Assembly: GCF_014243445.1 (NCBI RefSeq)
Contig: NZ_JACLQD010000002.1
Coordinates: 124,001-188,000, forward strand
From: Paragemmobacter straminiformis
GTDB taxonomy: Bacteria > Pseudomonadota > Alphaproteobacteria > Rhodobacterales > Rhodobacteraceae
Length of the DNA: 64,000 nt
Direction of reading: 5' to 3'
Positions 2,167 to 33,355 of the stretch are shown here, one piece after another (position 1 is the stretch's first letter; each line of letters starts with the position of its first letter). Made by a program: the position numbers and the translations under genes. The notes under the pieces are model-generated. The model was not told the DNA's origin, did not search any database, and was given only the letters and a program-made list of their open reading frames with translations.

Positions 2167-2607
2167 ATGAACAAATCCGAACTGTTTGAGTTTTTGCAAA
2201 TGCGAACAACAGAGGTTTGGGATAGTTCGAAACAACCCTATTACTTGGCAAGAGTGCAGCCCGAATTAAGAGACTCCGGGAAGAATTACAGAGAAGCAAC
2301 AGGCGAACAAACGTTGGCTACATTTGCGGAAGCTGTGCCGGGTATTCGTGTGGTTCGACACCCGCACAAGAAAGCGAAAATTGGCCTCGTTCCAGCATCA
2401 TCTCCGTTTGAGTTTTCTGAAATGGAGGGGCAGGCTTCAACTGAAGTCGCTGTACCTGCGTTACAATCGCGTTCGCGGATTTATCGACCGGGCGCGCAGC
2501 GCGTTATTGCTGATTTTATGCAACTTTTGTCGACTTTGGATGATAATGATCTGAAGGATTTTCACATACCGGCCCTTGTTTTGGCGAAATTGTTACGGTC
2601 GAAATGA
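2167..2607 (+). CDS. hypothetical protein, first gene of a two-gene cassette
   Basis: This encodes 146 residues with no family I recognise. The start ATG has a purine-rich GGAAGGGGG about 6-14 nt upstream. The middle (residues ~45-75: an EQTLATFAEAVPGIRVVRH stretch followed by a basic HKKAK patch) has the flavour of a small winged-helix or OST-HTH/LOTUS-type domain, but that is only an impression. The rest is mixed alpha-helical with no membrane segment or signal peptide. Its stop overlaps the start of the next gene (ATGA), so the two proteins are probably made together. AT-rich composition marks it as acquired DNA. Confidence 0.6.
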   Translation: MNKSELFEFLQMRTTEVWDSSKQPYYLARVQPELRDSGKNYREATGEQTLATFAEAVPGIRVVRHPHKKAKIGLVPASSPFEFSEMEGQASTEVAVPALQSRSRIYRPGAQRVIADFMQLLSTLDDNDLKDFHIPALVLAKLLRSK

Positions 2608-3425
2608 AGTTGATAATTGTTGTGGCCACGCCTGACGGGGCCTTGGCGAAAACAGTTGGTCAGAAAAAGACCTCGTTGATTGACTCGGCCGCACTAAGAA
2701 AAGCACTGAGTTTTGGTGTAAATGTGAATGTCTTGTCTGCCGTTCCAGCTTCGGTTCATGATTTCACAAAGTACCTTGTTGATCTTGGGCGCGATGCGGA
2801 CGGTATCATAACTATCCTTGACTCGAGGTTGAATGCTTTCAGCGCGCCTCTTTCTCCCTTCTTTTTTGTTGTTCCGCTCGGAAATGAGAGCGAAAATTTC
2901 AATCATCAGAATTTGCTAAGGTCTGCTTACAACAACGGGCTAAAATCATTCCTGGTGTTCTTCGAGAGATTCACAAAGCTTCAGTATAAGAAAATTCTAC
3001 TGCTGCCTTTTTCGAATTTCACTTCCTCAAAGTTTAGCGATTTGAAGGCGATTTTCTTGGGTGGGATTAGTGCGAGAGGTTTTGGGGATACCCTTGATGG
3101 AGCTATTGCCTCAATGAGAGGATTGCAGAAGCCAAAGACTTCCACCGGGTATCAGGATACATATTTTATTGATGACCGAGGGCGGCACTATCAACTCGGC
3201 CACGAAAGACATGCGCGGGCAGAAACAGGAAGCCCACCACATTCACTCTTGTGCATAGCTGGCGCTCGATTCAGGTTCGGAGTTGGGTTTGAGGATTGGT
3301 TGCATTTCAACGTCTCCTCGGCCCAAGGAGCAATTTCAGGGGATTTTGTCTCGTGTCACGGGGGCACGCTCAATGTCCCGGCGCGCACCCATATAAACCT
3401 GTTCCCAAACGATCACATAGCCTGA
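2604..3425 (+). CDS. hypothetical protein, second gene of a two-gene cassette
   Basis: This encodes 273 residues and starts inside the stop codon of the preceding gene (ATGA overlap), which implies translational coupling. I recognise no family. The first ~150 residues alternate hydrophobic strands and helices (MKLIIVVATPDG, DGIITILDS, FFFVVPLGNES, ILLLPFSNF), as in an alpha/beta fold, perhaps a nucleotide-binding or NYN/TIR-like domain. The last ~70 residues include GHERHARAETG and look like a separate domain. Its place in an island of antiviral genes makes a defence role plausible but unproven. Confidence 0.6.
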   Translation: MKLIIVVATPDGALAKTVGQKKTSLIDSAALRKALSFGVNVNVLSAVPASVHDFTKYLVDLGRDADGIITILDSRLNAFSAPLSPFFFVVPLGNESENFNHQNLLRSAYNNGLKSFLVFFERFTKLQYKKILLLPFSNFTSSKFSDLKAIFLGGISARGFGDTLDGAIASMRGLQKPKTSTGYQDTYFIDDRGRHYQLGHERHARAETGSPPHSLLCIAGARFRFGVGFEDWLHFNVSSAQGAISGDFVSCHGGTLNVPARTHINLFPNDHIA

Positions 3426-3842: not shown

Positions 3843-3878
<36 letters not shown>

Positions 3879-4123: not shown

Positions 4124-7100
4124 ATGGATGAGTTGTTAAAGGATGGATTTCTTTCGAGAATTTTCAGTCGCCGCTCATCCGCCAGCGTCCGTGTAGAGGG
4201 GCAGGTCAACGGTTCCGAAAGAGGCTCTGAAAACTGGGCCGACAATCGACACAAAACCGTCCGAACACTCGTTCACGAAGTGCTGTCGTCACCCGCGTGC
4301 CTGATCGTAACGGGATATCAGGATTTTCTCTCGGCTCTGACCATAATTCTCGAGAGCGTTCCCGACATCGCATCGCGCCCGCCGGGAAGCATTCGGATCG
4401 TCTTCGGGACCAACAGTGACAGCAGTCGTACGGTTGGTGGGGCAGGGCGGTCGGTATCTGACGAGGCCCGTTCGCATTTCCTGGGCGCTCGTGGGCTCGC
4501 AGTCAGTGATCTTGCCGATCTGCGCGCGATACTCGCCCTCGAAGCCATCGAACGAGGCGCAATCTCCTTTCGCGCCTTCGATGCCAACAAGGCCGCGGAA
4601 ACCCTTGGGAAGCGCCCCACAATGCTGCACGCCAAGTTATACGTGTCGAAAGAACGGGTCCTTTCCGGCTCTGCCAACTTTTCTAATGCGGGTATGCGCT
4701 CCAACTTGGAGTTCATCGACGATGTCAGCGACTATCCGGACTTGGCAAAAGCGCGTCGTGAAAGTGCTGAGGCATTTTGGAAGATGGGCGAGGACTGGAC
4801 TGAGACTGCACTCGAAATCCTGCGCGGCCTGATCCGCCTCGTGAGTGCCGAAGAGGCAGCAGCACGCTCCTACGTGGAGATGACCGGCTTCATACCATGG
4901 ATGGTAGGTGGGCTAACGAGCGCTGGTAGACCACCTCAGCCGTTTCAAGCCGAACTCGTTTACGAAGCCGCAGGCACGATCTACGAACATGGCTTTGCTT
5001 TCGTTGAAGCGCCGACCGGGGCTGGAAAGACCGATATTGGAAAACATCTCGCCGTTGTCCTGCCTGTGACGCATGGAGAGACGGTTCTCAGCACAGGTGA
5101 GCGGGCAGACCAGCGGCGGCTCGGCACACTCGCTTTGGTGCCTGCAAGCGTTCATGGAAACTGGGAAAAAAACTCGTCCTCAAACTTGAGTCTGATCAAG
5201 CACAGTCACCTTTCGAAGAAGGCGCGAGAGGAAGAGGCAGAGATGAATGAGATTAACCGCAAGATCCAGTCATCGGCGTCAATGATTGTTGACGAGAGCC
5301 ACCGGATGAGCTCTCGCTATCTCGCCCCATCGGCGCGATCCATTGTGTTCGAACAAAGCCCCGCCATATGGACGGCCTGTCTTTCGGCAACTCTTATGGG
5401 CAACCAAGGCCTCGATGGCCTTCTTGCCTTTCATGAAAAGCGCAGCTCGATCTACGTCCCGCCGCAGATCACATCTCGTATCAACGAGCATATGGCAAAG
5501 GTTCGCAGGAGATCGGAATTAATCCGAAACTTGCAGGAACTGGAGGACCGTATGGCAGCGCGCCAAGTTCAAGGCGATCTTTTCGAGCGCCCTGAAGTTC
5601 TTGCGGAGGAGTTGCGGCGAACAAAGTCGCTAATTGTAGAGGGCGGGCTTGAGCCCCGCCAAATCCAATCCGATCTTGCAGCCTCATTGGCCCCCTATGT
5701 GGTCCGGCGCCAGCGCGACTGTATCGGGGAGAGCCCTAACCGGTCCAAGAGTCATTTCACCTATCCCCCGATCAGGCTCGAACGGCTAGACGCCGATTTG
5801 ACCGAACAGCAAGCGCGCGTCATTGCCCGCATTAAGGATTTGGCGGAAGCCATAACCACCGGAACAACACTTGTTTCGGCGGATCCAAAACGGGCGGGGC
5901 AAGCGGAAATTCGGTTCCATGACAAGTCCCGGATCCATATTCGGAACTTCTTGGCAGTGCTGAGGTCCTCTATTTCTTTTGCCCGGATAGAATGGACGCA
6001 AGAGCGCGACAGCGAGACTGATCAGAGGGGCAGGGCTTCAATCGGGGAAAGCTTACGACGAGCTGAACGGCAGAGCCGCCGAGCACTTCAGGTTCCTCCA
6101 GGTGAGCTGCCGGAAGAGCGGCCCAGCGGCGACGATGATAGTAAGACGCCAATTTGCGATCGAATTCGCCGGCTTCTCGACGTTCCTGCCTTGGTGGAAA
6201 TTGACGTACAGCGGGCGAAACAAATGGCGGATATTCTGAACCGCCATGTTCAAGTGATCTTCCTCGCTGAACGGATCGGTGTACTCGAAGTCTATGCAAA
6301 TCTTCTGGTTCGTAATGCCCGAAAGGATGCGGAAATCTTCGTGGTTGCGCCAGGTGTGCCTACATTCGGACAAAGCAAGATCAAGCACCTGCGGAGTGGA
6401 TCAGACGCGCAGGACTACCTGGCAATCGATGGAAAGAAGGCAGATCCGTTGAAGCAACGGGCGATGTTCCTGACGTTTCAAATGGCAGAAGGGATCAATT
6501 TGCAGCGCGCTTCTGCGCTAGGGATTATCGGGGTTACGTCGGACATCAAGGCCATGATCCAAGGTCTTGGCCGAATTGACCGGATCGACAGTCCACATTC
6601 AAAGATTCACTACTTCACGTTCGACCTTCCTGGTCTCGTTCTCTCCTCGGACAAGAAGGCGCGCGAAAGGGTCGAAAGTTTAGCACTTCTTTCCGGGGTT
6701 GGGGCGAAAGACCTGCCTTCAGCCCTTGTCGAGTTTGCGGCAGGCGATGTGACCGAGTTGATTGTTCGACAAATTAGGAAGCCGCGTGAACTACGACCCA
6801 ACAACAAATTTGATATGCTTACGCGTCTTGGGAGGCGGCTAAATGCGTCTCTTGTGGAAGATATGCGCTCGAACAGACCGCGCGGCCTCTGGGGCGCGGA
6901 CCTTTGTCTCCTTAAAGGCAAGGAACCTTCGACAATTTTGGTGCTGAATGGCGAAGCTGGAAGCCTCCGAGACGGCTGCGTGCTGCCTCCGCGTCTCGTT
7001 GCAGTGCGCGAGAGTGGATCTGAGCTGATCGTGACTGGCGACCAGTCAGAGACGGCGCGATTGCTCGATGACGCTTACGCCCTCACTGAAGCACAAGGCC

Positions 7101-7573
7101 GCCATCACGTCCGCCCAACCCTTCAGGATGTACAAGACACCCTGTCGCGGCTTCTCGAAACCTTCGGTGGCCTCACACACTGGGACATCCGACCAGCGAG
7201 GACCGTGTCCTTGCTCTCGTCTCTCAGCAAATTCCTTGGAAGTGATAAGTCGGATGATGGTCACGACCTTCTTGGCAGTCTCACGCTACCCTGTTTGGAA
7301 AAATTGGCCGAGACTTGGGCTGCAATCCTCGACCCGTCTTGGATCCGCGCCAAACAGCAGATCAGTTCGCGCAGCAAATCTGGCATCGAGATCCCGGATT
7401 ATCTTGGTATCGAGGCCATTACGCGCGTTTTCTTGGATGAGCCTGAAGCCTACATACAGAGCGCACACGATGCGATGCAGGAACTCCTTGATGGGTGCCG
7501 GGCAGCGTCTGATGGACAGACAATTTCACTACTCGATCGTGTTGGTGTGATCTTCAGCGTTCAGCGCTCGTAA
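4124..7573 (+). CDS. PLD-nuclease / SNF2-type helicase fusion, putative defence protein
   Basis: A 1149-residue protein. Residues ~55-235 resemble a phospholipase D-type nuclease domain with one HxK motif (H169, K171) followed by SGSANFSNAG. Next comes a superfamily 2 helicase: Walker A APTGAGKT around residues 296-303, Walker B DESH at 390-393, a LSATLMG motif III, and a C-terminal lobe with QGLGRIDRID (motif VI, from residue ~813). The last ~250 residues match nothing I know. PLD domains attached to SNF2-type helicases occur in prokaryotic defence genes such as DISARM relatives, where they act on foreign DNA. A single HKD half suggests a dimeric nuclease. The next gene, a DUF262-DUF1524 protein, follows after 132 bp on the same strand, so the two probably work together. 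Confidence 0.75.
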   Translation: MDELLKDGFLSRIFSRRSSASVRVEGQVNGSERGSENWADNRHKTVRTLVHEVLSSPACLIVTGYQDFLSALTIILESVPDIASRPPGSIRIVFGTNSDSSRTVGGAGRSVSDEARSHFLGARGLAVSDLADLRAILALEAIERGAISFRAFDANKAAETLGKRPTMLHAKLYVSKERVLSGSANFSNAGMRSNLEFIDDVSDYPDLAKARRESAEAFWKMGEDWTETALEILRGLIRLVSAEEAAARSYVEMTGFIPWMVGGLTSAGRPPQPFQAELVYEAAGTIYEHGFAFVEAPTGAGKTDIGKHLAVVLPVTHGETVLSTGERADQRRLGTLALVPASVHGNWEKNSSSNLSLIKHSHLSKKAREEEAEMNEINRKIQSSASMIVDESHRMSSRYLAPSARSIVFEQSPAIWTACLSATLMGNQGLDGLLAFHEKRSSIYVPPQITSRINEHMAKVRRRSELIRNLQELEDRMAARQVQGDLFERPEVLAEELRRTKSLIVEGGLEPRQIQSDLAASLAPYVVRRQRDCIGESPNRSKSHFTYPPIRLERLDADLTEQQARVIARIKDLAEAITTGTTLVSADPKRAGQAEIRFHDKSRIHIRNFLAVLRSSISFARIEWTQERDSETDQRGRASIGESLRRAERQSRRALQVPPGELPEERPSGDDDSKTPICDRIRRLLDVPALVEIDVQRAKQMADILNRHVQVIFLAERIGVLEVYANLLVRNARKDAEIFVVAPGVPTFGQSKIKHLRSGSDAQDYLAIDGKKADPLKQRAMFLTFQMAEGINLQRASALGIIGVTSDIKAMIQGLGRIDRIDSPHSKIHYFTFDLPGLVLSSDKKARERVESLALLSGVGAKDLPSALVEFAAGDVTELIVRQIRKPRELRPNNKFDMLTRLGRRLNASLVEDMRSNRPRGLWGADLCLLKGKEPSTILVLNGEAGSLRDGCVLPPRLVAVRESGSELIVTGDQSETARLLDDAYALTEAQGRHHVRPTLQDVQDTLSRLLETFGGLTHWDIRPARTVSLLSSLSKFLGSDKSDDGHDLLGSLTLPCLEKLAETWAAILDPSWIRAKQQISSRSKSGIEIPDYLGIEAITRVFLDEPEAYIQSAHDAMQELLDGCRAASDGQTISLLDRVGVIFSVQRS

Positions 7574-7705
7574 CCGAGATCGGGATACGATTTAATCTGG
7601 TTGCTTGCGATGACGGTTCACAATGACAACTTCTGCGTGCAGGAAGTGTTGACCCGCGTTTTATTTCCCGTCATTTTTTCGGTAACTTATGTCTGAGGAT
7701 CTTTC

Positions 7706-9529
7706 GTGCAACCTAATTATATCGAAATATCAAAGCTTTTTTCGAATGATGAACGCTTTACCGTGCCCTTGTTCCAGCGCCCATATGTCTGGTCGCGTGA
7801 GGCCCAGTGGGAACCACTATGGGATGATGTAAGAGGTGTTTTGTATAGGCTTGAGCAGCGCAAAGGGGATGCGCCAGTTGCAAGCCACTTCCTTGGTACG
7901 ATCGTGCTTGAGCAAAAGCCGACGCCAACGGGCAGTTTGACGCGGCGTGAAGTCATCGACGGTCAGCAACGGCTCACTACGCTGCAGATCCTGCTGAAGG
8001 CGACTGAGCATGCCATTCAGGTGATCATGCCGGGTCCCGAAGATCCTGACTCCGAAGCTTGGGCCATGGAGCGCGACAAAATCGCTCGGTTAACGAAAAA
8101 CCTTTCCGCAGGAGAGGAGCGGTTCAAGGTTTGGCCGACGAACGAAGACCGCGATCCTTTCCGTCAGGTTCTTGAGGCGAAAGCGGAAGATGGCCTCAAA
8201 GAAAGCAGTACACGGATGGCCGAGGCTTACCGGTATTTTCGGTCCGAAGTATCCAAATATCTCTCCTCCGATCATCCGCTAATTTCGGCACAGCGAATTG
8301 TCACAGCTCTGCGAGACTTTCTGAAATTGATCGTGCTCGACCTCGATCAAAGCGACGAACCACAGGCTATCTTTGAAACATTGAACGCGCACGGAACGCC
8401 GCTGCTGCCGGCCGACCTGATTAAGAACTGGCTGCTTTGGGAAGCTGCGCGCCAGAAACAAGATGTTCAGGGGCTCTACGAGACATATTGGCGACCGTTT
8501 GACAGAGATCATCAATACTGGCGCGGTGTAGTCGGAACGGGTCATGCCGCCCGGCCGCGAGTTGACACCTTCTTGCAGAACTGGCTCAGCAAGGAAACTG
8601 TCGAGCCGGTCTCCCCGAAGCACATTTATGATAGATTTCTTCGGTTTGCTGCAGCGAACACTTTGACAAGCAGTGACGCGTCGGTAGTTGCACAGAACAT
8701 CATGTCTAGCATTCGCAATGATGCGAATTGCTTTTTGCGGATAGACATTCCGAGTGGTAATGGGCGTTTCGATCTGTTCCTTGAGCGGATGAAGTCTTTG
8801 GATCTCGTGGTATTCCACCCGTTCCTATTTGGGTTGATGGATCGGCTTCAACACCTGCCAAATGCACTCGAACAAGTAGCCGTTCTGCTGGAAAGCTATC
8901 TTGTCAGGCGTGTGATTTGCGGCATGCAAACCCGTAGCTATGGTACGCTTAGTTTGAAATTGTTGCGAACGGTACTCGATTCAGACGGCCAGGACGTTCC
9001 CGCTTTGATCAAAGCACAGCTTCTTGGGCTGGACGGCACGGATGAGTGGCCATCGGACGAAGCGTTCGAAAGAGAGTGGATGAGGCGTCAGTTCTACGGT
9101 TATTTCCGTCGCGAAAGAGTTTTGATGATCTTGCGAGCCTTGGAGCACCATTACCAGTCATCGAACGGAAAATCCGAACCGCTCATGACCTTTGATTGGT
9201 CAAAACTGCAGATCGAGCATATCCTGCCTCAGACTTGGCAGCCCAATTGGCCGTTGACACCCGAAGTGACAGCCGAAGAACGAAAGGCCAATATTCAAGG
9301 GATTGGCAATCTTACGCTGGTAAGCCAGGCTCTCAATCCCACGCTATCAAATGCCGCATGGATAGGAAGCGATACAAAGCCCGGCAAGCGTGAGGCGCTG
9401 CATAAGTATGCGATGATGCAGATTAACCGAAGGCTCCTCGATGAATTTGGTGAAAATTGGTCTGACGAGACAATAAAACAGCGTGCAAAGATGCTGTTCG
9501 AGGACGCAAAAATAATCTGGCCGAAGTAA
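7706..9529 (+). CDS. DUF262 and DUF1524 (GmrSD-like) protein
   Basis: A 607-residue protein. The N-terminal DUF262 domain carries VPLFQRPYVW and the ParB-like nucleotide-binding motif IDGQQRLTTL (D85 onward). The C-terminal DUF1524 domain is an HNH-type nuclease, with EHILPQTW (H505) followed by GIGNLTLV and LNPTLSNAAW. This is the single-chain layout of GmrSD-type type IV enzymes, which use NTP hydrolysis to cut modified DNA. The start is GTG at 7706, supported by TGAGGA 8-13 nt upstream; no in-frame ATG fits better. It sits between the PLD-helicase and a small unknown gene on the same strand. Either it is a stand-alone type IV restriction enzyme or it is part of a multi-protein system. Confidence 0.85.
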   Translation: MQPNYIEISKLFSNDERFTVPLFQRPYVWSREAQWEPLWDDVRGVLYRLEQRKGDAPVASHFLGTIVLEQKPTPTGSLTRREVIDGQQRLTTLQILLKATEHAIQVIMPGPEDPDSEAWAMERDKIARLTKNLSAGEERFKVWPTNEDRDPFRQVLEAKAEDGLKESSTRMAEAYRYFRSEVSKYLSSDHPLISAQRIVTALRDFLKLIVLDLDQSDEPQAIFETLNAHGTPLLPADLIKNWLLWEAARQKQDVQGLYETYWRPFDRDHQYWRGVVGTGHAARPRVDTFLQNWLSKETVEPVSPKHIYDRFLRFAAANTLTSSDASVVAQNIMSSIRNDANCFLRIDIPSGNGRFDLFLERMKSLDLVVFHPFLFGLMDRLQHLPNALEQVAVLLESYLVRRVICGMQTRSYGTLSLKLLRTVLDSDGQDVPALIKAQLLGLDGTDEWPSDEAFEREWMRRQFYGYFRRERVLMILRALEHHYQSSNGKSEPLMTFDWSKLQIEHILPQTWQPNWPLTPEVTAEERKANIQGIGNLTLVSQALNPTLSNAAWIGSDTKPGKREALHKYAMMQINRRLLDEFGENWSDETIKQRAKMLFEDAKIIWPK

Positions 9530-9570
9530 AAAGCGTTTCTATTCGCGAAATGTAAAGAAAAGGCTAATCA

Positions 9571-10050
9571 ATGGATCTGGCGCAAAAGACACCGGAGCAG
9601 CTGGAGCGAATCATCTCTCGCCATAGAGACGCGGGAAAAATGAGCGCTGATTTATGTAAGCAAGCTATGGCTGAGTTGTCCACGCGGGTTGTAAAGGGAT
9701 TTAATCTCACGCACGCAATCGATCATCTTATTGATGCTGCAAGGTCAGGTAAGCCAACAGATTTCAAACAGTTGGCAATTGCCTCAGGCGTATTTGATGA
9801 AAAAATTCATGTCTGGGGAAACTGGGCAACCACCTCACTTAAATTGGATCGTTTGTGTATTTACTGTGTTCACCATGGTTTGCCGCAGCTTACGGCGATG
9901 CTGGGAAATGCTGGCGGTAAGATTGGAGACTCCGTATGTGATGGATTTTTGAAAGGTTTGGATGCAGCTGGGATAAAGTATTCAGGTGAGCCTCGCGCGA
10001 TTTATGAAGAGCATCGCAAAATCTGCATTGAATGGGGCGCAAGTGCTTGA
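9571..10050 (+). CDS. hypothetical protein, third gene of the helicase/GmrSD-like set
   Basis: A 159-residue protein, start ATG with AAAAGG about 6 nt upstream, 41 bp after the DUF262-DUF1524 gene. I recognise no domain. It is mostly helical and soluble, with cysteines at C30, C97 and C100 (LCIYCVHHG) and others near C131 and C152. There is no signal peptide or membrane segment. The close spacing suggests an accessory or immunity-like partner of the two upstream proteins, but this is only inferred from position. Confidence 0.6.
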   Translation: MDLAQKTPEQLERIISRHRDAGKMSADLCKQAMAELSTRVVKGFNLTHAIDHLIDAARSGKPTDFKQLAIASGVFDEKIHVWGNWATTSLKLDRLCIYCVHHGLPQLTAMLGNAGGKIGDSVCDGFLKGLDAAGIKYSGEPRAIYEEHRKICIEWGASA

Positions 10051-10223: not shown

Positions 10224-13118
10224 TTACTTTCCATCCGTCAGATCGCCGATTGCGTCGTCGAAAGTAGCCAGCATACTGTCCATGCCGGCGATGATGCGCT
10301 CAATGGTGGCGCGCCGCTTTAGGATGGACGGTGCTTCGAGCATTGCGGCAACGACTTCATCACCAAGTGGGGCCTTACCCGTGTATATCATACGACCGAA
10401 GAGTATGCCGAATGCGGTGGGGTCAAGCTTCTCTTCAGAACAGAACCGCGAAAAGGCTGCATCTCGTTCTGAAGCCCAATATGCAGCGAAAATAGCGTGG
10501 ACGTCGTCGTTCGGACCCAGAAGCGGCATTTTTTCGTCAATGAATCTGCTGATAAGGTCACGTTTGTCGCGCAGTTGCGTTTCTGACAGCAAGAGGTCGA
10601 AAATCCGTTTCCGCTGCGCTTTAGCTTTACCGACAGAGATTTCTCCCTCTTGTACAGCCACATTGAGGTTAGCGAGCAAGGCAACAATGTAGGCGACGTT
10701 GATCTCGTCGCGCCGGATCAGTTCCAGTTCAAAGTCGATTTCTTCCAGCGGCGATGTTTCGTCATCCTCTTTCGGCTCCTTGGTCTTCTGCGCCAGGTCG
10801 AGGTACTTAGATTTAAAATCCTCGAAATCCTGCGGGGCCATGGCGAGGTCGTTCGGTTTGAATTCGCTGTAGCTTGCAAGGACGTTACGGATGCGGATCA
10901 GTTCGCGGAACCGCGTGACAAATTCTGCCTCTGCATTTTCATCCGGCAGATCGTCCACAGCATCCGGGTTCGGAGTCAACGTAAGCAGGTTCCGGACTGC
11001 TTCCTCGAATTTTTCGAGTTGCTCCTCATACGTTCCGACAAGGATTGTCTCCCGGGCATTCTTGTCCGCGAACAGGGCAATAGCTTCGTCTGTGCGTTCC
11101 TTTAGATCGCGGAAACAGACGATGTTCCCTTGGCTCTTCTCCTGACCAAGAATGCGGTTGGTGCGAGAAAACGCCTGGATCAGGCCGTGGAACTTCAAGT
11201 TCTTGTCGACGTAGAGCGTGTTCACCGTCTTCGCGTCGAAGCCTGTCAAAAACATGTTCACGACCAGCAGAATGTCGACACCCTGATCCGGCACAAAACC
11301 CTTTCGATCCCGTGACTTGACCCGCTTTGCGAGGGCGCGGTAATAGGTATAGAACCCACCACCGTCCAAGATGCTTTCATTCGTGCCGTAGCGAGCATTG
11401 TAGTCCGCGACGTAGCCGGCAAGCTTGTCGCGGCGTGGGATCTGGGCGCCGGTCGCTGAATTGGTCGGAAAGTTTGTCTCGGGGATCAGGTCGTCTGCCT
11501 CGGTGTCTTCTTCGTTCGCAGCGTAAGTGAATATCGTCGCAATCTTAAGGTCGTGTGCCCCGGCCTTCCTTCTTTCCTCGAAGCGGTCGTAATACTTTAT
11601 CAGACCGTCGACCGACCCGACGCACATCATGGCCCCGAACTGACGGCCACGGGTCTTGCGGTCGTGGTTGTCGATGACCCAATCCACCACCGCCTCGACG
11701 CGTCGCGGGTCTTCCATCACTTCGCGCGACGCGAGTTGCTTTTCGCGTTCGGCCTTGGCCTCGGGCGTCTCACCCTCAATCGGGGCGGTGGTGGACATGT
11801 ATTCGACCGAGAAGCGAAGCACGTTCTCGTCGCGGATGGCATCCGTGATGACATAGGTGTGCAATCGTTGGCCGAAGAGGTCGGCCGTGGTTCGGCGGCC
11901 CACGGCATTGTCGGCAAAGATTGGGGTGCCGGTAAAACCAAACATCTGCACGCGTGTGAAGAATTCACGGATCTTGCGATGTGCATCGCCGAACTGGCTG
12001 CGGTGGCATTCGTCGAAGATCATTACGACGCGGCTGTCTTTGAGCGCCTGTAGGGCAGGGGAGAAGCTTTCGCGCGAGATTGCGGTGTTCAGCTTCTGGA
12101 TCGTAGTGATGATCAGTTTGCGTCCGGGTTCGAGGAACTGTTTAACCAGCGCCGCCGTGTCATCCGTGCCGTCGACCGATCCCGGCGAGAAGAAGTTGAA
12201 TTCTTGCGTGGTCATGTAGTCGAGGTCGGCGCGGTCCACGACGAAGAGCACCTTTTCGACCTTGGGGTTCTCGCACAGGTTCTGCGCTGCCTTGAAGCTG
12301 GTGAGCGTCTTACCCGAGCCCGTGGTGTGCCAGATATAGCCGTTCTCGCGTCCGGCCTTGACCCGTTCGGTGATCGCCTCGACCGCGTAGTATTGGTAGG
12401 GCCGCAAGACCATCAGTATCTGGTCGCTCTCGTGCAGCACCACGTATTTCGCGATCATCTTCGACAGGTGGCATTTTTCGAGGAAGAAGTCTGCGAACGG
12501 CTCCAGCCGGTTCATCGCCTTGTTGTCGGTGTCCGACCAGGTGAAGGTCTGCTTGAAGCTTTGGTGCCGGTTGTTGGCGTAGTAGCGCGTGTTCACGCCG
12601 TTCGAGATGACGAAGATCTGGACGAACTGGAACAGGCCGCCGGCGGCGGCAAAGCTGTCGCGCTGGTAGCGGTTGATCTGGTCGAAGGCGGCCTTCAGCT
12701 CGACCCCGCGCCGCTTTAACTCGATCTGGCAGAGCGGCAGTCCGTTCACCAGCAGGGTCACGTCATAGCGGTTGGCACGGCGGCCCTGTATGCCGATCTG
12801 TGTCGCGACCTGGTATCGGTTGCGGCACCAGTGCTCGAGGTTCATGAACTGCACGTAATGGCTGCTGCCATCGTCGCGGATCAGGTGGAACCGGTCACGC
12901 AGGGTGTGGGCCTTGTCGAAGACATTGCCCTTTTCCAGATGGTTGCGGATTTTGCCGAACTCGGCATCCGAATAGGTGGTTTCGTTCTGCGCGCCCAGTT
13001 CGGCCCGCAGGTTGGCCCAAAGCGCCGTCTCGGTCGGCAAGGATACCGGCGCCCAGCCTTTGGCTTTGAGCCGCTCGATCAGGATTGCTTCAAGCTGGGC
13101 TTCGGACTGGATGGACAT
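10224..13118 (-). CDS. hsdR: type I restriction endonuclease subunit R
   Basis: A 964-residue translocase/nuclease subunit of the type I complex. The N-terminal nuclease domain has a PD-(D/E)xK core (RYDVTLLVNGLPLCQIELK). The SF2 motor follows, with Walker A TTGSGKT, the DEAD-box variant DECH and the motif FTGTP. The C-terminal helical region for complex assembly is complete, and the length is typical of the family. The ATG start lies 9 bp after the hsdS stop, so it is the last gene of an hsdM-hsdS-hsdR operon. It cuts DNA lacking the methylation set by HsdM/HsdS. It appears intact. Confidence 0.95.
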   Translation of the reverse strand: MSIQSEAQLEAILIERLKAKGWAPVSLPTETALWANLRAELGAQNETTYSDAEFGKIRNHLEKGNVFDKAHTLRDRFHLIRDDGSSHYVQFMNLEHWCRNRYQVATQIGIQGRRANRYDVTLLVNGLPLCQIELKRRGVELKAAFDQINRYQRDSFAAAGGLFQFVQIFVISNGVNTRYYANNRHQSFKQTFTWSDTDNKAMNRLEPFADFFLEKCHLSKMIAKYVVLHESDQILMVLRPYQYYAVEAITERVKAGRENGYIWHTTGSGKTLTSFKAAQNLCENPKVEKVLFVVDRADLDYMTTQEFNFFSPGSVDGTDDTAALVKQFLEPGRKLIITTIQKLNTAISRESFSPALQALKDSRVVMIFDECHRSQFGDAHRKIREFFTRVQMFGFTGTPIFADNAVGRRTTADLFGQRLHTYVITDAIRDENVLRFSVEYMSTTAPIEGETPEAKAEREKQLASREVMEDPRRVEAVVDWVIDNHDRKTRGRQFGAMMCVGSVDGLIKYYDRFEERRKAGAHDLKIATIFTYAANEEDTEADDLIPETNFPTNSATGAQIPRRDKLAGYVADYNARYGTNESILDGGGFYTYYRALAKRVKSRDRKGFVPDQGVDILLVVNMFLTGFDAKTVNTLYVDKNLKFHGLIQAFSRTNRILGQEKSQGNIVCFRDLKERTDEAIALFADKNARETILVGTYEEQLEKFEEAVRNLLTLTPNPDAVDDLPDENAEAEFVTRFRELIRIRNVLASYSEFKPNDLAMAPQDFEDFKSKYLDLAQKTKEPKEDDETSPLEEIDFELELIRRDEINVAYIVALLANLNVAVQEGEISVGKAKAQRKRIFDLLLSETQLRDKRDLISRFIDEKMPLLGPNDDVHAIFAAYWASERDAAFSRFCSEEKLDPTAFGILFGRMIYTGKAPLGDEVVAAMLEAPSILKRRATIERIIAGMDSMLATFDDAIGDLTDGK

Positions 13119-13127
13119 CGGGCACCG

Positions 13128-14342
13128 TTACACGAACATCTGTTGCAGGAGGCCCTTCTTGAAGGCCTCCATTCTTGAGGTCTGGCTACGAACGGCGGCA
13201 ATCTTGTCGTCTATCGCTAAAATGGCGTCGGCTATTTTGCGTTGCTCGTCTATGCAGGGGACGGCCAGTCTGATTGAAGCAAGAGCTGGATACTTCAGAT
13301 TCCACGTATCCGACGTCAGACCCTGTGAGCTACGCTCGAAAAGAAAAATCACAGACGGAAGTTTGAAGTAGTAACCCCAAAAATCCATTACCTGCGGTGA
13401 CGTAGCATAGATGACTGTATATGCCGGACTGACAATACCGTTGTATTTTGAAACTCCACTGGCCCCCTGCCACATGCGCATTGAGTTGTATGCAATATCT
13501 CCTGCTCGGACGGATTTGTAGTTTGATAGATCTGCGCTAGCGCCATCTGTTCGATCAATCTCAGCAGCGCGGACTACGCCTTTGTTCATCGTGACCGAAA
13601 GCAACTCGGCTAATATGTCGCCCCGTTGGGCGCGCTCGACAAACACCGCTCCAAGGCGTTTTTCTTCCCAGTCTGGAAAAGCGGATCCATCTTCGCGGGT
13701 GAAACGAATTTTTTGCGAGAAGAGCTTCTGCATCAGCCCCGCCTTGAACCGCGTTAGCGCTGCTTCTTTCCGCCGCAGCCCCGAAATTTTGCCATCCACC
13801 GCACCGAGGAAAGACGCGATTTTTTGCTGTTCGGGGAGGGTTGGAAGAGCGACAGTGAAATCCGAAAGGATAGCTTGGCTGAGGTTGCTGATATTTGTTC
13901 CGCCGCCCATTTCATCCAGATAGCGCCGAAACTTTGGGCCTCTAAAAAGGCGGCCGCCAAAAATTGAATCAACACTTTTCGAGGTGCGTCGTCCCCGAAT
14001 GGTAAAGCCAGAAAAGGACGCCACCGCCTGCATGCGTCCGATGTGGAGGCACCGTCCAATCAACGCCTTGTTTCCATTGGAGCGGACAAAAAGTAGGTCG
14101 TTCTCTTGCAGCACGTCTCGATCGGTAAGCTTCTCAGAAATATGAACCGTGGGAAGGCTCTCAACATCGTCGAAATACTCGTTCCTCTGGAACTCCGAAA
14201 CTCCCAGAATCCGGACCTCCTCACCTGTCATGTCTCGGGTAAAGTTTAGCCCATTTCGGAATTCATAGACGCTTCCTGCTTTCGTAAGTCGCCACTCCCC
14301 AGCAAACTCTGGAAATCGCAGCTTCGGAATAGCCCCGCTCAT
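13128..14342 (-). CDS. hsdS: type I restriction-modification specificity subunit S
   Basis: A 404-residue subunit with two target recognition domains, each followed by the conserved helical spacer. The first spacer contains LPEQQKIASFLGAVDGKI and KAGLMQKLFS; the second contains DEQRKIADAILAIDDKI and KKGLLQQMF. Each recognition domain reads half of a bipartite DNA target, which cannot be predicted from sequence here. The ATG start overlaps the hsdM stop by 4 nt, with a GGAG upstream. It is complete at both ends. Confidence 0.95.
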   Translation of the reverse strand: MSGAIPKLRFPEFAGEWRLTKAGSVYEFRNGLNFTRDMTGEEVRILGVSEFQRNEYFDDVESLPTVHISEKLTDRDVLQENDLLFVRSNGNKALIGRCLHIGRMQAVASFSGFTIRGRRTSKSVDSIFGGRLFRGPKFRRYLDEMGGGTNISNLSQAILSDFTVALPTLPEQQKIASFLGAVDGKISGLRRKEAALTRFKAGLMQKLFSQKIRFTREDGSAFPDWEEKRLGAVFVERAQRGDILAELLSVTMNKGVVRAAEIDRTDGASADLSNYKSVRAGDIAYNSMRMWQGASGVSKYNGIVSPAYTVIYATSPQVMDFWGYYFKLPSVIFLFERSSQGLTSDTWNLKYPALASIRLAVPCIDEQRKIADAILAIDDKIAAVRSQTSRMEAFKKGLLQQMFV

Positions 14343-15892
14343 ACCGGAGACTCCAGCCCAAGCTCGGCGCAGAAGGCACGGATTTGCGCGTCGATCGGGG
14401 CCATGTCCTTTTCGACCTGATCCAGTTCCTGCGCCACGGCGGCAAGATCAATCTCGGCCTCTGCCTCGAACGTATCCACATAGCGGGGAATGTTCAGGTT
14501 GTAGTCGTTACCAGCGATCTCGGCGACACTGGCGCGGTGACTAAACTTTGCCTCCTCGTTCCGAGTGCGATATGCAGTGACGATACGGTCGACATCCTCG
14601 TCCCGCAGGCGGTTTTCATTCTTGCCCTTCTCGAAACACGAAGAGGCGTCGATGAACAGCACATCGTCCGTCTCGCGGCATTTCTTGAAGACCATAATGC
14701 AAGTCGGAATGCCGGTGCCGTAGAAGATGTTGGCGGGCAGGCCGATGACGGCATCGAGCCAGTTCTTTTCCCGGATGATGTATTCGCGGATCACCCCTTC
14801 GGCGCCGCCACGGAACAGCGCACCGTGGGGCAGGACCACAGCCATCGCACCATTCTCGTCGAGATGGGCCAGCATATGGGTGACGAAGGCATAGTCCGCC
14901 TTCGACGACGGAGCGAGCTTCCCATATTTGGCAAAGCGGTCGTCCTGCAGGAACAGCGGCCGCGCCGACCATTTGGCCGAGAAAGGCGGATTGGCGACGA
15001 TCGCCTCGAACTGCATCCCCTCATGCTGGGGGTGTTCCAGCGTGTCTTCCTGCTTCAGGTCGAAGTTGCGGTAATGCACCCCGTGCAAGATCATGTTCAT
15101 GCGTGCGAGGTTATAGGTCGTGCGGTTCATCTCCTGCCCGAAGAAGTCGCCCACATCGCTTACCTCGCGCGCCACACGCAGGAGCAGGGACCCCGACCCG
15201 CAGGTCGGGTCATAGACCGATTTCAGCCGCGTTTTGCCGGTGGTGACAATGCGGGCGAGGATCGTGGAAACCTGTTGGGGCGTGTAGAACTCACCCGCCT
15301 TCTTGCCAGCGCCGCTGGCGAACTGGCCGATGAGGTATTCATAGGCGTCGCCCAGCACATCGGCCTTGGCATCATCCAGCCGGAAATCGATGGCATCGAG
15401 GTGGGTCAGAACACGCGAAATGAGGGCATTCTTGGCTTCTTCGGTGCGGCCAAGCTTGGTGGATGTCAGGTCGAGGTCTTCGAAGAGATGATCGAAGTCT
15501 TCCTCGGACGCAGTGCCCATGGTCGAACGTTCGATGTTAGACAGGATTGTTGCCAGGTCGCCTAAGATGAAAGCCCCTTCTTCCCCTCGCTTCGCGACTG
15601 CCGAGAAGAGTTCGGACGGCTTGAGGAAGTAACCAAGCGCCTCGACCGAGGCGTCCTTGACGGCGTCGAGCACGGCAGCACCCTCGGCCGACGTTTCGTC
15701 AATATCGGTGAAGTCGATCTTGTCGTTGTCGAGGATGCGCGTGGCGTAGGCGTGCATCCGCTCGGAAAGGTACTTGTAAAAGATGAAGCCCAAAATGTAG
15801 TCGCGGAACTCATCCGCATCCATTTTGCCGCGGAGGGTATTGGCGATATCCCACAGTTTTTGTTCAAGTTTTTTCTTCTGTTCGTCGGTCAT
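14339..15892 (-). CDS. hsdM: type I restriction-modification DNA methyltransferase subunit M
   Basis: A 517-residue N6-adenine methyltransferase subunit. An N-terminal HsdM helical domain (EQKLWDIANTLRGKMD) is followed by the SAM-binding motif DPTCGSGSLLL and the catalytic motif NPPF (VANPPFSAKW). The open frame extends upstream to a TTG, but the ATG at 15892 gives the usual MTDEQKKKLEQ-type start and has GGGGAC upstream, so I chose it. It leads the minus-strand operon and is coupled to hsdS by an ATGA overlap. Confidence 0.95.
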   Translation of the reverse strand: MTDEQKKKLEQKLWDIANTLRGKMDADEFRDYILGFIFYKYLSERMHAYATRILDNDKIDFTDIDETSAEGAAVLDAVKDASVEALGYFLKPSELFSAVAKRGEEGAFILGDLATILSNIERSTMGTASEEDFDHLFEDLDLTSTKLGRTEEAKNALISRVLTHLDAIDFRLDDAKADVLGDAYEYLIGQFASGAGKKAGEFYTPQQVSTILARIVTTGKTRLKSVYDPTCGSGSLLLRVAREVSDVGDFFGQEMNRTTYNLARMNMILHGVHYRNFDLKQEDTLEHPQHEGMQFEAIVANPPFSAKWSARPLFLQDDRFAKYGKLAPSSKADYAFVTHMLAHLDENGAMAVVLPHGALFRGGAEGVIREYIIREKNWLDAVIGLPANIFYGTGIPTCIMVFKKCRETDDVLFIDASSCFEKGKNENRLRDEDVDRIVTAYRTRNEEAKFSHRASVAEIAGNDYNLNIPRYVDTFEAEAEIDLAAVAQELDQVEKDMAPIDAQIRAFCAELGLESPV

Positions 15893-16368
15893 GCCCGTCC
15901 CCAATGTTGCTCTTGCCAAGGAAATGGGTCTGCGCCTCGGTTCGCAGAAGATTTTTGTCAGGTTTTCACCTGTGGCTGCAACCCCTTGTTGTAGGAGGCG
16001 GGTATCGGTCGTCGTTCGCAGCCCATCAGGTGGCCGAGCCTGCGCCGTTCCGCCTGCGGCGGGCCTTCGGCGGTTTTCTTATTTGTTCTATACTGTTCTA
16101 TTACATTCTATAGCGGGATATGCCTTAAAAAACAGATGCTTATGGGGTTAATCACGCTATGAAAGCGGTGTTCAGGCCGCACAAGGCGCCTTTGGCGATG
16201 TATTTGACGAAGTTGCGACCTACGAACGAGGCACCCGGGGTTGAAAAAGCGGCGACAGCCAATGGAGTCAACGGCGGACAGATAGAGCACGGATTCAAAC
16301 CCGATTCCGATTAATCACTCGGCCTACCCAGATTTCGTTCAACACGAGACGGATAGGGCCATGTTGTG
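15893..16368. other. divergent intergenic region
   Basis: No gene is supported in these ~475 bases. The region separates the minus-strand hsd operon from the plus-strand recombination module and must hold promoters for both. An AT-rich patch around 16080-16135 is the most promoter-like part, but I cannot assign -35 and -10 boxes with confidence. Confidence 0.5.
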
Positions 16369-17157: not shown

Positions 17158-17245
17158 CACATCCATAATTGTTTTATTAACATTTTGGCATTGTATTTTT
17201 TAATCTGCAGCAATCGAACCCAACTTCTCACAATAGAGGTTGGGA

Positions 17246-17770
17246 ATGCACATCGAAACGTCAATCACTTGTCACCGCCGCATTGAAGAAGCTGCGTTTC
17301 TTCTGGGCCTTAGCTATCGTTCAACCCTTCGGCTGATACGAGATCACGAGGTCTGCGTTGTTGATGAATGCATCGATTTAGGTGGTTTGCTTCTGTGTCT
17401 TGGAGTGCCAAGCGATGTTGTCGTCCAATCTATCCATCTTAAGCGGATATTCCTGACTGGAAGCGAGTTAGCTCAGCGGCTTGGTATCTCATCACGAACA
17501 GTTTCCACATACGCGCGCGGAACTCGCAGACTTGAAGGATTTCCACGCTCCATTCGTATAAGTGAGAAAGTCAGGCTATTCTTCGAAAGCGATTTGCAAG
17601 AAATGGAATTTGGAACTTCTAATCAATCGGACTTTACTTTTACACCTGTGCATGCACCTAACGATCCAGCCGAATCCGTCATTACAGAGTTAAATATTTC
17701 AACTATCCAGTTCAATCTTGAGGAGCTTATTCCTCGTCCGCCAAAGAATAAACGGGTTCGGAAAAAATGA
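17246..17770 (+). CDS. putative helix-turn-helix protein of the recombination module
   Basis: A 174-residue protein. Two short segments look like MerR- or excisionase-style HTH units: EEAAFLLGLSYRSTLRLI near residues 13-30 and GSELAQRLGISSRTVSTYARG near 75-95. The C-terminus is basic (PPKNKRVRKK). The ATG at 17246 was preferred over the TTG at 17240 because AGAGG lies 7-11 nt upstream. Position directly before the recombinase genes fits a recombination directionality factor or regulator, though the family is not recognised. Confidence 0.6.
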   Translation: MHIETSITCHRRIEEAAFLLGLSYRSTLRLIRDHEVCVVDECIDLGGLLLCLGVPSDVVVQSIHLKRIFLTGSELAQRLGISSRTVSTYARGTRRLEGFPRSIRISEKVRLFFESDLQEMEFGTSNQSDFTFTPVHAPNDPAESVITELNISTIQFNLEELIPRPPKNKRVRKK

Positions 17771-17776
17771 CAAACA

Positions 17777-17793
17777 TCCCAATTTTTTTGGGA
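17777..17793 (+). terminator. small hairpin after the HTH-like gene
   Basis: TCCCAA and TTGGGA form a 6-bp stem with a T5 loop, 6 nt past the stop of the upstream gene. It may attenuate transcription into the recombinase gene or have no role. Confidence 0.3.
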
Positions 17794-17878
17794 GCGGAAA
17801 GATTTGATATGCATGTCATTTTTCACTTCTGATTTTGAAATTATAGCCAATGTATCATTTATCCAGAGGAGTTCTATC

Positions 17879-19645
17879 ATGATGAATATTATTCCTGGTC
17901 GTGCAAGTTCTTTCGCGGATGTCGTTGAATGGGCAAGATTGAACCGCGGTTTGGATGACTTCCGCGCCGTCGCTCGCGTTGAGAAACTCTGGGAGAACGT
18001 TCCTCTTTTTAGCCGCCCAGCAGATCTCGGTGGATTCGAAAAGCAGTTCCCCCTTCATGGTTTTGATCCGGCTGTGCACAAGTCAGAGTTTGCATACAAG
18101 GCTTGGCGTCGCAAAGTCGTCTCTGTCTTGAAGGCATTCGCGGCGAGGCAAACCACTTCGTCGGCCTTGGTAAAACAGGTTGAGACAGACGGTGTGCAAC
18201 TTGTCTGGCAGCGGCTGTTAGGTCTCGTTGTTCAACATGTGGAGTCCAGCGCCGAGCCTGCTCTCAAACCGCAGCAAATGCTCCCAGTTCAGTTTCTTTC
18301 GCGGCATTCGGTACGACTTGGCATCACGCCTGCCGACCTGTCGGCACAAACTTTGACCCGACTTGGTGCTGATCTTGACGGGAACGACCGCCGGACCGTA
18401 ATCGCGGCACTTCGAATACTGAACCGCTTGCGGTCGGTTCCAAGGATTGAAGCTCTGTTGGGAGCAGAAGCTTACACCCTCTCGCCATGGCCTCGAAGGC
18501 ACGCAATCGGTGAACTACCCGAGGCGCTAAGGTCCGAAATCGAACAATGGCTTGACGTTTCTTGTGGCGGCAGTTTCGACCTCGTCGCTGATATGCTGAT
18601 CAACGCTACATCTAAAAGTGATCGCGCAAAGAAGAGCGTTGCTCTTAGGCGGTTTTGCGAAGCGGCCATTGAAGTTGATCCGGCGCGCAACTGCAGCACC
18701 CTTGCGGAGTTTATGAACGTTGAGATCGCAACGGCAGTCTTGCGCCGATGGCTCCAACATGGAGACAAGAAAAGACTCTCCAATCGAACTATCTCTAGCT
18801 ACTTCAAAGCAGTCAAAACCGTTGCGGCGCATAACCAGGTCGATGTGGCCGGGTTCTGCGTTCTTGAACGGACGACCGTGGTCCTCACCGAAGGACGGCG
18901 TGACGGTGATATCATGTCGTTACGTGTAAGGAAGTTCTGTGAAACGTTACTCGGCACAAAAAGTCTTCAAGTCAAACTGTTAACACTTCACGTTCAAGCG
19001 CGCCGTCTCGCACAGTCCCTGCTCGACAGAGCAGAGGCAAATGAGCGCGAACTATCCGGAATGGAACTCTATCGTGTCCGACAGCTGGGTGCTTTTGCGG
19101 CCTTCTGCGCAATAGAAACTTGCGCCGTCCCTTTGCGGATCGAGAACGTCATGCGGCTGACCTTCCGCGGGCCGGATGCCAATCTGCTCATGCCAACTAC
19201 CGCAACTCCTTTCGCGCGCATCATGCTTCCGGGGAAGGTTGTGAAGAACCAGAAGCCCGTTGATGCAGCACTCCGACAAGATCGCCGGAACGGCTTGGAT
19301 ACCTTGCGCTGGTATCTGAGTCAGGTTCGCCCGCTTTTTCCTAGCAGCGACGGGAACGACCATCTGTTTCCCGCAGTGCGTGGAGATGGGCCGTTGTCGA
19401 AGACGCTCTTTCGAAACTGGTTTATTAAGATCAGTCGGAGCCTCGGCCTACCGATGCGTCCGCACAACTTCCGCCATGGCCTCGCGTCACTGCTGATTCA
19501 ACAGTTTCCGGGACAGTATGAAGCGGTTGCAGTTCTCTTGGGTGACACAGAGAGCACTGTCAGGAAATACTACGCATGGGTAAATCGTCGTTTGCAGATC
19601 GAAGCGGCCCAAGCTCTCGTCGTGGAGCTGGCAAATGCGGCGTGA
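17879..19645 (+). CDS. tyrosine recombinase of the recombination module
   Basis: A 588-residue protein. The C-terminal third is a tyrosine recombinase catalytic domain: Arg I in VPLRIENVMRLTF, the HxxR box in RPHNFRHGLASLL, an LLGD in place of the usual LGH, and the nucleophile region STVRKYYAW. The long N-terminal part (~350 residues) would hold the core- and arm-binding domains. The ATG at 17879 has GAGGAG 7 nt upstream and was chosen over the TTG at 17804. It overlaps the next gene by 11 nt, so the two are co-translated. It is distinct from the island integrase at 30833-33205 and may move a smaller element nested in the island. Confidence 0.8.
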   Translation: MMNIIPGRASSFADVVEWARLNRGLDDFRAVARVEKLWENVPLFSRPADLGGFEKQFPLHGFDPAVHKSEFAYKAWRRKVVSVLKAFAARQTTSSALVKQVETDGVQLVWQRLLGLVVQHVESSAEPALKPQQMLPVQFLSRHSVRLGITPADLSAQTLTRLGADLDGNDRRTVIAALRILNRLRSVPRIEALLGAEAYTLSPWPRRHAIGELPEALRSEIEQWLDVSCGGSFDLVADMLINATSKSDRAKKSVALRRFCEAAIEVDPARNCSTLAEFMNVEIATAVLRRWLQHGDKKRLSNRTISSYFKAVKTVAAHNQVDVAGFCVLERTTVVLTEGRRDGDIMSLRVRKFCETLLGTKSLQVKLLTLHVQARRLAQSLLDRAEANERELSGMELYRVRQLGAFAAFCAIETCAVPLRIENVMRLTFRGPDANLLMPTTATPFARIMLPGKVVKNQKPVDAALRQDRRNGLDTLRWYLSQVRPLFPSSDGNDHLFPAVRGDGPLSKTLFRNWFIKISRSLGLPMRPHNFRHGLASLLIQQFPGQYEAVAVLLGDTESTVRKYYAWVNRRLQIEAAQALVVELANAA

Positions 19646-23099: not shown

Positions 23100-23110
23100 C
23101 CGACCAGGCT

Positions 23111-23431
23111 TCAGAGCTTTCTGCGGATGACGTCCTGCAGCATCTCGCGGTCCAGCGTCAGGTCCGCCACGATCTTCTTCAGCCGCGCATTCTCGTCCTC
23201 GAGCTGCTTGAGCCGCTTCATCTCGGTCGGAAGCAAACCGGCATACTTCTTCTTCCAATTGAAGTAGGTCGCCTGGCTGATCCCCGCCTTGCGGCAGATC
23301 TCCGCAACTGGCGTGCCGTCTTCGCCCTGCTTGATGATGAACGCCTTCTGGGCGTCCGAGAAATTGCTCGCCTTCATCCGATTCCGCTCCTCTCCCAGCC
23401 GGAAAAGCGTAGCCGAAAACTCCAGCTTCAA
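23111..23431 (-). CDS. IS3-family transposase OrfA (HTH protein)
   Basis: The open frame gives 106 residues; the family-typical start MKASNFSDAQKAFIIKQ lies 18 codons in, at about 23377. A helix-turn-helix (PVAEICRKAGISQATYFNWKKKY) is followed by a leucine-zipper-like helix (MKRLKQLEDENARLKKIVADL). OrfA binds the IS ends and controls transposition. Its stop overlaps the orfB frame, as expected for programmed frameshifting. Confidence 0.85.
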   Translation of the reverse strand: MKLEFSATLFRLGEERNRMKASNFSDAQKAFIIKQGEDGTPVAEICRKAGISQATYFNWKKKYAGLLPTEMKRLKQLEDENARLKKIVADLTLDREMLQDVIRRKL

Positions 23432-33205: not shown

Positions 33206-33228
33206 GGTCGCTCCTCCGTCGGAGCGCG

Positions 33229-33279
33229 GTGCCCGGGCTGTGCCCTGCAAGTGCCCCGAATGTGCCCTGGAGTGTGCCC
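33229..33279. promoter_or_regulatory. five phased GTGCCC boxes upstream of the integrase
   Basis: GTGCCC occurs at 33229, 33240, 33251, 33262 and 33274, with spacings of 11, 11, 11 and 12 bp, so all copies lie on one face of the helix. They sit between the integrase start (33205) and the attachment site (33356). This position suits arm-type binding sites for the integrase, or an autoregulatory operator. Function is inferred from layout only. Confidence 0.65.
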
Positions 33280-33299
33280 CTGCCGGGTGCGGAAAGAAG

Positions 33300-33326: not shown

Positions 33327-33355
33327 TCCTTTGAAATCAGAGCTTTAAGGGCTCA

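What the first reader, a model, noticed from the sequence alone, without database searches (positions are those of the whole stretch)
4124..10050. Candidate defence system: PLD-helicase, DUF262-DUF1524 protein and a small Cys-containing protein
Three same-strand genes with short gaps (132 and 41 bp) combine a single-HKD PLD nuclease fused to a SNF2-type helicase, a GmrSD-like NTPase/HNH nuclease, and a 159-residue protein of no known family. Each large protein has relatives in defence, but I do not know this trio as a described system. The C-terminal ~250 residues of the helicase are also unassigned.
Basis: partly seen in the sequence, partly recalled or inferred. Interest (0 to 1): 0.8.

Follow-up and report, generated by a model that had tools for sequence, protein, structure and literature searches.

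The report
PLD helicase beside interchangeable restriction enzymes
The three neighbouring genes are real and lie in a bacterial defence island, but they are not a conserved trio: the large helicase-nuclease belongs to a small family whose close relatives sit beside different restriction enzymes in other bacteria, here a GmrSD-type one, and the third, small gene looks like an unrelated neighbour.

Summary
The genes are as described: PLD-helicase 4124-7573, GmrSD-like DUF262-DUF1524 protein 7706-9529, 159-residue protein 9571-10050, in a low-GC island with type I RM and an Avs3a-like gene. The trio is not a conserved system. In an even sample of 275 same-family genomes the helicase occurs in 13, the DUF262 protein in 10, the small protein in 4; only the window's own genome appears in two of these lists. 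None of 45 helicase loci, flanks often cut, holds the other two.

Following the helicase gave an unexpected pattern. Of 21 distinct close relatives (window included) 17 lie beside a restriction system on the same strand, and one beside an McrBC remnant: SauUSI-like type IV enzyme 14, McrBC 1, type I RM 1, GmrSD-like 1 (the window). None of these partners was found in 23 distant relatives, 16 of them with at least 1 kb on both sides. I propose a PLD-type DNA-degrading helicase paired with interchangeable, mostly modification-dependent restriction enzymes. Pairing is shown by gene order; mechanism is inferred.

The parts
4124..7573 (+). PLD-helicase, 1149 aa: PLD nuclease motif (H169, K171, G182-S183, N185), SF2 helicase core (about 270-835), conserved C-terminus without assigned fold
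7706..9529 (+). GmrSD-like DUF262-DUF1524 protein, 607 aa (GTG start); proposed restriction partner of the helicase
9571..10050 (+). 159-aa protein of a small family; probably a passenger, not part of the module
10224..15919 (-). Convergent type I RM genes: HsdR 10224-13118, HsdS 13128-14342, HsdM 14339-15919; neighbouring system, not counted as part of the module

Best explanation
A two-gene restriction module plus a passenger gene. The first gene encodes a PLD nuclease driven by an SF2 motor that has no detected modified-base reader (no DUF3427, unlike SauUSI). The second encodes a GmrSD-type enzyme that should cut DNA carrying modified cytosines with the help of NTP. In relatives the helicase stands beside a SauUSI-like enzyme, McrBC or a type I RM system instead, so the restriction partner is exchangeable. 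Inferred steps: the partner recognises foreign, mostly modified, DNA and cuts it or stays bound as a roadblock; the PLD-helicase, probably a dimer through its PLD domains as SauUSI is, loads on that DNA, travels along it and shreds it. Shown: domains, intact motifs, same-strand pairing, different partners on different branches. Inferred: dimer, loading, shredding, co-transcription, anti-phage effect. I put the paired-module anatomy at about 0.65 and this mechanism at about 0.3; the score given is for the statement as a whole.
For: 17 of 21 distinct close relatives lie beside a restriction system on the same strand, 1 more beside an McrBC remnant: SauUSI-like in 14 (gaps 48-66 bp in the 12 measured; 66 bp across the record ends in L003), McrBC 13 bp downstream in L127, HsdR-M-S 125 bp upstream in L006=L017, GmrSD-like 132 bp downstream in the window. 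The partner of the 14 has PLDc_2 (below cut-off), ResIII and DUF3427 and is PADLOC's type IV methyl-directed enzyme, E 2.9e-118. None of these partners was found at E<=1e-10 in 23 distant relatives. In the tree the McrBC, GmrSD, type I and SauUSI lineages branch one after another with local supports 0.997-1.0. PLD and helicase residues are fixed across the family. SauUSI, with the same PLD-SF2 core, translocates and shreds (PMC7913695 abstract and passages); its crystal structure is Foldseek rank 9 for the low-confidence helicase model (E 5.1e-3).
Against: The helicase-GmrSD pair was seen only in the window, and the McrBC and type I pairs in one or two loci each; 14 of the 17 pairings are one clade, so the independent pairings number about four. 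An earlier tree with other rows put the window with L006/L017 at support 0.340, so the exact branching is not firm. L022 has no partner with both sides visible; L019 and L020 are cut downstream. SauUSI-like relatives at 60% and 54% lack the helicase, and SauUSI works alone (PMC3874153 passages), so these partners do not need it. SauUSI-like and type I enzymes carry motors of their own. BrxU and HEC-06 act without a partner (PMC11411939 passages). No experiment here shows interaction or joint transcription.
Confidence: 0.45

Rival explanations
1. Layered but independent defences: the PLD-helicase is a stand-alone system and the GmrSD-like protein a stand-alone type IV enzyme that sits behind it, as BrxU sits with BREX and HEC-06 with Hma clusters. 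Each covers phages that the other misses.
For: The 23 distant relatives of the helicase showed none of the partners. The nearest DUF262 relatives follow other defence clusters: L055 (50%) the DUF499-DUF3780-DUF1156-PLD system, L084 (40%) a DrmMI-like methyltransferase gene. BrxU and HEC-06 are reported to act independently (PMC11411939, PMC12707154 passages).
Against: 17 of 21 close relatives of the helicase have a restriction partner on the same strand at short range, which independence alone does not predict.
Confidence: 0.35
2. Chance neighbours in a defence island: recombination brought the three genes together and their order means nothing.
For: The island also holds type I RM, an Avs3a-like gene and recombinase genes. 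The three genes differ in GC: 0.558, 0.518, 0.471. The helicase-GmrSD pair was seen once.
Against: Recurrent short-range same-strand restriction neighbours in close relatives, about four different kinds on different branches.
Confidence: 0.15
3. The trio: one three-component system, the 159-residue protein included.
For: Same strand, gaps of 132 and 41 bp, no terminator-like site on the + strand in either gap.
Against: Co-occurrence in 1 of 275 family genomes, the window's own; 0 of 45 helicase loci; the 69% relative of the small protein (L083) has neither partner in 20 kb.
Confidence: 0.04

Closest known systems
SauUSI (type IV, modification-dependent; PMC3874153, PMC7913695, passages)
   Same: N-terminal PLD nuclease followed by an SF2 motor; a true SauUSI-like gene is the helicase's neighbour in 14 close relatives.
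   Different: The window's helicase has no DUF3427 match, is about 200 residues longer than the 949-aa SauUSI-like neighbour protein of its relatives and has its own conserved C-terminus.
GmrSD / BrxU / HEC-06 (DUF262-DUF1524 type IV enzymes)
   Same: Protein 2 has both domains with intact motifs and matches HEC-06 (E 3.1e-54) and, best, Orf5 (E 3.2e-94) models of PADLOC. GmrSD-like genes near type I RM and inside other defence clusters are known (PMC4619093, PMC11411939 passages).
   Different: Here it follows a PLD-helicase of a family for which I found no description.
DUF499-DUF3780-DUF1156-PLD-helicase anti-phage system (NF042964, NF042963)
   Same: There, too, a PLD-helicase is followed by a relative of protein 2 (50%). 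PMC7641849 describes related archaeal clusters (passage).
   Different: That PLD-helicase does not align with the window's (best E 0.18), and the window has no DUF499, DUF3780 or DUF1156 gene among those examined beside the helicase.
CoCoNuT systems (McrBC with helicases, PLD nucleases in type III-C; PMC11090510 passages)
   Same: McrBC beside helicase and PLD proteins, as in relative L127.
   Different: Not tested against CoCoNuT profiles; that their helicases are of another superfamily is recalled.

Membership tests
GmrSD type IV restriction (protein 2) | DUF262 and DUF1524 domains in one protein | tested here: met
   both above curated cut-off
GmrSD type IV restriction (protein 2) | DGQQR nucleotide motif and His-Me nuclease motif | tested here: met
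   DGQQR 85-89, IEHILP 503-508, GNL 534-536
GmrSD type IV restriction (protein 2) | NTP-dependent cleavage of DNA with modified cytosine | not testable with these tools
   needs biochemistry
SauUSI (protein 1) | PLD nuclease motif and SF2 ATPase motifs | tested here: met
   Pfam scores under cut-off
SauUSI (protein 1) | C-terminal DUF3427/SRA reader | tested here: not met
   no DUF3427 match at E<=0.1; the SauUSI-like neighbour in L003 does match
DISARM DrmC / Dpd DpdK (protein 1) | NCBIfam equivalog score above cut-off | tested here: not met
   21.5 and 20.1 bits against cut-offs of 133 and 100
PLD-helicase of the DUF499-DUF1156 system (protein 1) | match to NF042964 / PADLOC PLD_Helicase | tested here: not met
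   neither model among matches at E<=0.1; no alignment
Conserved three-gene system | the three genes occur together in unrelated genomes | tested here: not met
Mokosh (protein 1) | helicase of the Mokosh kind with PLD (recalled) | not tested
   whether the PADLOC version used holds Mokosh models was not checked

The most novel reading that the evidence does not exclude
A reader-less PLD-helicase family that serves as a common DNA shredder for unrelated restriction enzymes: SauUSI-like, McrBC, GmrSD-like and type I enzymes each supply recognition in a different lineage, and the helicase turns their recognition or cut into destruction of the DNA. That would be a shared, partner-swapping effector, mainly of type IV restriction.
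Probability: 0.25. Interest if true: 0.75.

Novelty: new variant of a known kind. Interest (0 to 1): 0.5.

Why it matters
The type IV enzymes SauUSI and BrxU are described as acting on their own. One helicase-nuclease that recurs beside three unrelated type IV kinds and one type I system would suggest a common second step in destroying modified DNA and would give an uncharacterised protein family a testable job. It also shows why a gene trio in one island should not be read as a system before comparison: the small gene drops out and the constant element proves to be the helicase.

Tried and rejected
Trio as a system: rejected on co-occurrence. A decayed SauUSI-like partner in front of the window's helicase: looked for and not found; the best window match of that protein lies in the HsdR gene, and in the own genome only partial matches of 24-29% identity turned up. 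Relatives of the small protein in viral contigs: none in two scans. Its single-sequence fold failed (mean pLDDT 44.6); I draw nothing from it. Helicase fold: mean pLDDT 59.7, pTM 0.38; used only for 'SNF2-like core'. No sequence of known structure matched the helicase profile at E<=0.1. Conserved cysteines of the small protein: suggested, dropped. Attachment repeat: the 25-base 3' end of the tRNA-Asn occurs once in the genome, so no exact repeat of that length. Helicase in phage records: no match. Family scan of the neighbours of 23 loci (21 distant or intermediate, and the partnerless L020 and L022): 102 of 103 neighbour proteins were scanned; the families listed hold no restriction enzyme, but only the first 25 of 111 Pfam and 25 of 37 PADLOC families were shown, so single matches may be hidden. 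The direct partner search uses one or two representatives per partner and would miss remote ones.
Full report
Observation. The consensus scans show no terminator-like or promoter-like site on the + strand in either gap, though such scans were near chance level overall; co-transcription is possible, not shown. Protein 1 scores below Pfam cut-off for PLDc_2 and DEAD, but its catalytic positions are fixed: H169, K171, G182, S183, N185 in 41 of 41 aligned relatives and E196 in 40 of 41; the aspartate of a classic HKD motif is not conserved. Helicase motifs lie in invariant columns of 26 aligned sequences. Protein 2 is a clear GmrSD-family protein with intact motifs, best matched in PADLOC by Orf5 (E 3.2e-94) and HEC-06 (E 3.1e-54) models. 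Protein 3 matched no family.

Surroundings. Behind the trio, on the other strand, are HsdR, HsdS and HsdM (Pfam). Farther on come an excisionase-like protein (17240-17770), two proteins with weak recombinase matches (17804-21020), an IS3 transposase (22275-23258), an Avs3a-like protein of 2197 residues (PADLOC E 1.1e-175) and an integrase (30833-33250) next to a tRNA-Asn gene. GC is 0.547 in 1-33300 and 0.660 in 33500-64000. I read this as a mobile defence island. The host is probably one of the Rhodobacterales: the helicase relatives come from organisms of that order by their titles, one being titled only Proteobacteria, and genome G418 of the window's own family carries the helicase at the coordinates of a Neotabrizicola shimadae plasmid.

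Is the trio a system? No. Helicase relatives were collected from plasmids (3 records), viral contigs (1 locus; the same contig again) and genome contigs (41 loci). In these 45 loci (L003-L047), with flanks up to 10 kb and often cut by contig ends, no relative of the DUF262 protein or of the small protein was found at E<=1e-3. In an even sample of 275 genomes of the window's family the helicase occurs in 13 (E<=1e-6), the DUF262 protein in 10 (E<=1e-20), the small protein in 4 (E<=1e-6), and the only genome in more than one of these lists is the window's own. In an even sample of 385 genomes of the class the helicase occurs in 1 (the window's own), the DUF262 protein in 20 (E<=1e-20), the small protein in 5 at E<=0.01, of which only the own genome and G154 are convincing.

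What travels with the helicase? Clustering of neighbours showed one conserved partner directly upstream on the same strand, a protein of about 949 residues. It has PLDc_2 (below cut-off), ResIII and DUF3427 domains and is PADLOC's type IV methyl-directed restriction enzyme (E 2.9e-118), so SauUSI-like; SauUSI is PLD-ATPase-DUF3427/SRA (PMC3874153 and PMC12707154 passages). It accompanies 14 distinct helicase loci: L003, L007-L016, L018, L021, L125, with gaps of 48-66 bp in the 12 measured and 66 bp in L003 across the record ends, if that plasmid is circular. L127 (56% helicase) has McrB- and McrC-like genes downstream on the same strand, gap 13 bp (AAA_5; McrC PF10117 E 2.5e-70). L128, a related decayed locus, keeps 25 residues of McrB and 45 of McrC just behind a broken helicase. 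L006 and L017 carry identical sequence and are counted once; they have HsdR-M-S upstream on the same strand, gap 125 bp. The window has the GmrSD-like gene.

Count. 21 distinct close relatives with the window (56-65% identity): SauUSI-like 14, McrBC 1, McrBC remnant 1, type I RM 1, GmrSD-like 1, none 3. Of the three without partner, L019 and L020 come from one metagenome bin and are cut 12 and 172 bp behind the match; L022 has more than 1 kb on both sides. Among 23 distant or intermediate relatives (31-36%; L034 and L039 incomplete) none holds any of these partners or the small protein at E<=1e-10; 7 of the 23 have less than 1 kb on at least one side. L134, a short piece, was left out of that set.

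Tree. In one search (41 rows, L019, L034 and the broken L128 left out) the close relatives branch as L127 (McrBC), then the window (GmrSD), then L006/L017 (type I), then the SauUSI clade with L020 and L022, local supports 0.997 to 1.0. In an earlier tree with other rows the window grouped with L006/L017 at support 0.340. Either way the deep branches have different restriction partners: about four pairings, three with type IV enzymes. SauUSI-like enzymes do not need the helicase: two plasmid relatives at 60% and 54% lack it.

The GmrSD-like protein. Contexts of its four closest relatives found were looked at. L055 (50%, Methylocystis heyeri plasmid, listed there as two adjacent DUF262 genes) follows the PLD-helicase of the DUF499-DUF3780-DUF1156 anti-phage system, which does not align with the window's helicase. 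L084 (40%) follows a DrmMI-like methyltransferase gene and a further gene of no clear family. L056 (38%) and L085 (37%, interrupted) have no recognisable defence partner by my reading. The plasmid search gave 300 records, of which I viewed the surroundings of 2. GmrSD-like genes near type I RM or embedded in other defence clusters, and BrxU and HEC-06 acting on their own, are published (PMC4619093, PMC11411939, PMC12707154, passages).

The small protein. The family sample gave one relative of 69% (L083) and two of 33-35% (L122, L123) besides the window. Plasmids gave eight full-length matches of 28-32% with E from 1e-5 to 0.2, two of them the same stretch; six of the eight surroundings were viewed. 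Neighbours are tyrosine recombinase genes (L052, L053), SOS peptidase genes (L052, L054, L058), an HNH gene and a Dnd cluster (L057), and in L083 and L123 a second small protein, 65% identical over 127 residues between the two, not found in the window. I read that second protein as nuclease-like by eye; Pfam gave no match.

Mechanism. The family shares SauUSI's PLD-SF2 core without its modified-base reader. SauUSI is a dimer held by its nuclease domains; it moves along DNA, and a pile-up against a bound molecule is proposed to shred the DNA (PMC7913695, abstract and passages). The simplest working model is that the restriction partner supplies recognition, and perhaps the roadblock or cut, while the PLD-helicase supplies destruction. 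Every step beyond gene order and intact motifs is inference. The main rival is two independent layers that share an operon.

Novelty. Searches for print on this pairing listed no paper, by title and start of abstract, on this helicase family beside type IV enzymes. Passages of nine papers were seen, none read whole, and the library lacks most subscription journals. CoCoNuT systems link McrBC with helicases and, in type III-C, PLD nucleases (PMC11090510 passages), so PLD and helicase proteins beside McrBC are not new as such.

Noticed in passing
23851-30444 (-): A 2197-residue protein with a NACHT domain that matches PADLOC Avs3a over residues 62-1045 (E 1.1e-175).
   Followed up: partly
3849-3878: A run of 30 G, the only G or C run of 9 or more in the window, about 250 bp before the helicase start; possibly a length-variable tract or an assembly artefact.
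   Followed up: no
17240-21020 and 30833-33432: An excisionase-like protein and two weak recombinase matches in a row, and a separate integrase beside a tRNA-Asn gene: two sets of mobility genes in one island.
   Followed up: partly
2167-3425: Two overlapping genes (146 and 273 aa) before the helicase; the first has a weak, below-cut-off match to the MmeI target-recognition domain (E 0.024); no relative of either in 45 helicase loci at E<=1e-3.
   Followed up: partly
L003: A 16.6 kb Neotabrizicola plasmid record with SauUSI-like gene, PLD-helicase and a SIR2 defence gene (PADLOC E 9.8e-128); the SauUSI-like gene of Rhodobacter sp. CZR27 also has a SIR2 gene next to it.
   Followed up: no
L083:9986-11115 and L123:9686-10964: The 159-residue family paired with a second small unknown protein (65% identical over 127 residues between the two loci).
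   Followed up: partly
L006 / L138: A contig listed as viral is identical, over the 14.8 kb held, to a Pseudorhodobacter antarcticus contig with an integrase gene and HsdR-M-S; it may be a bacterial island, not a virus.
   Followed up: no
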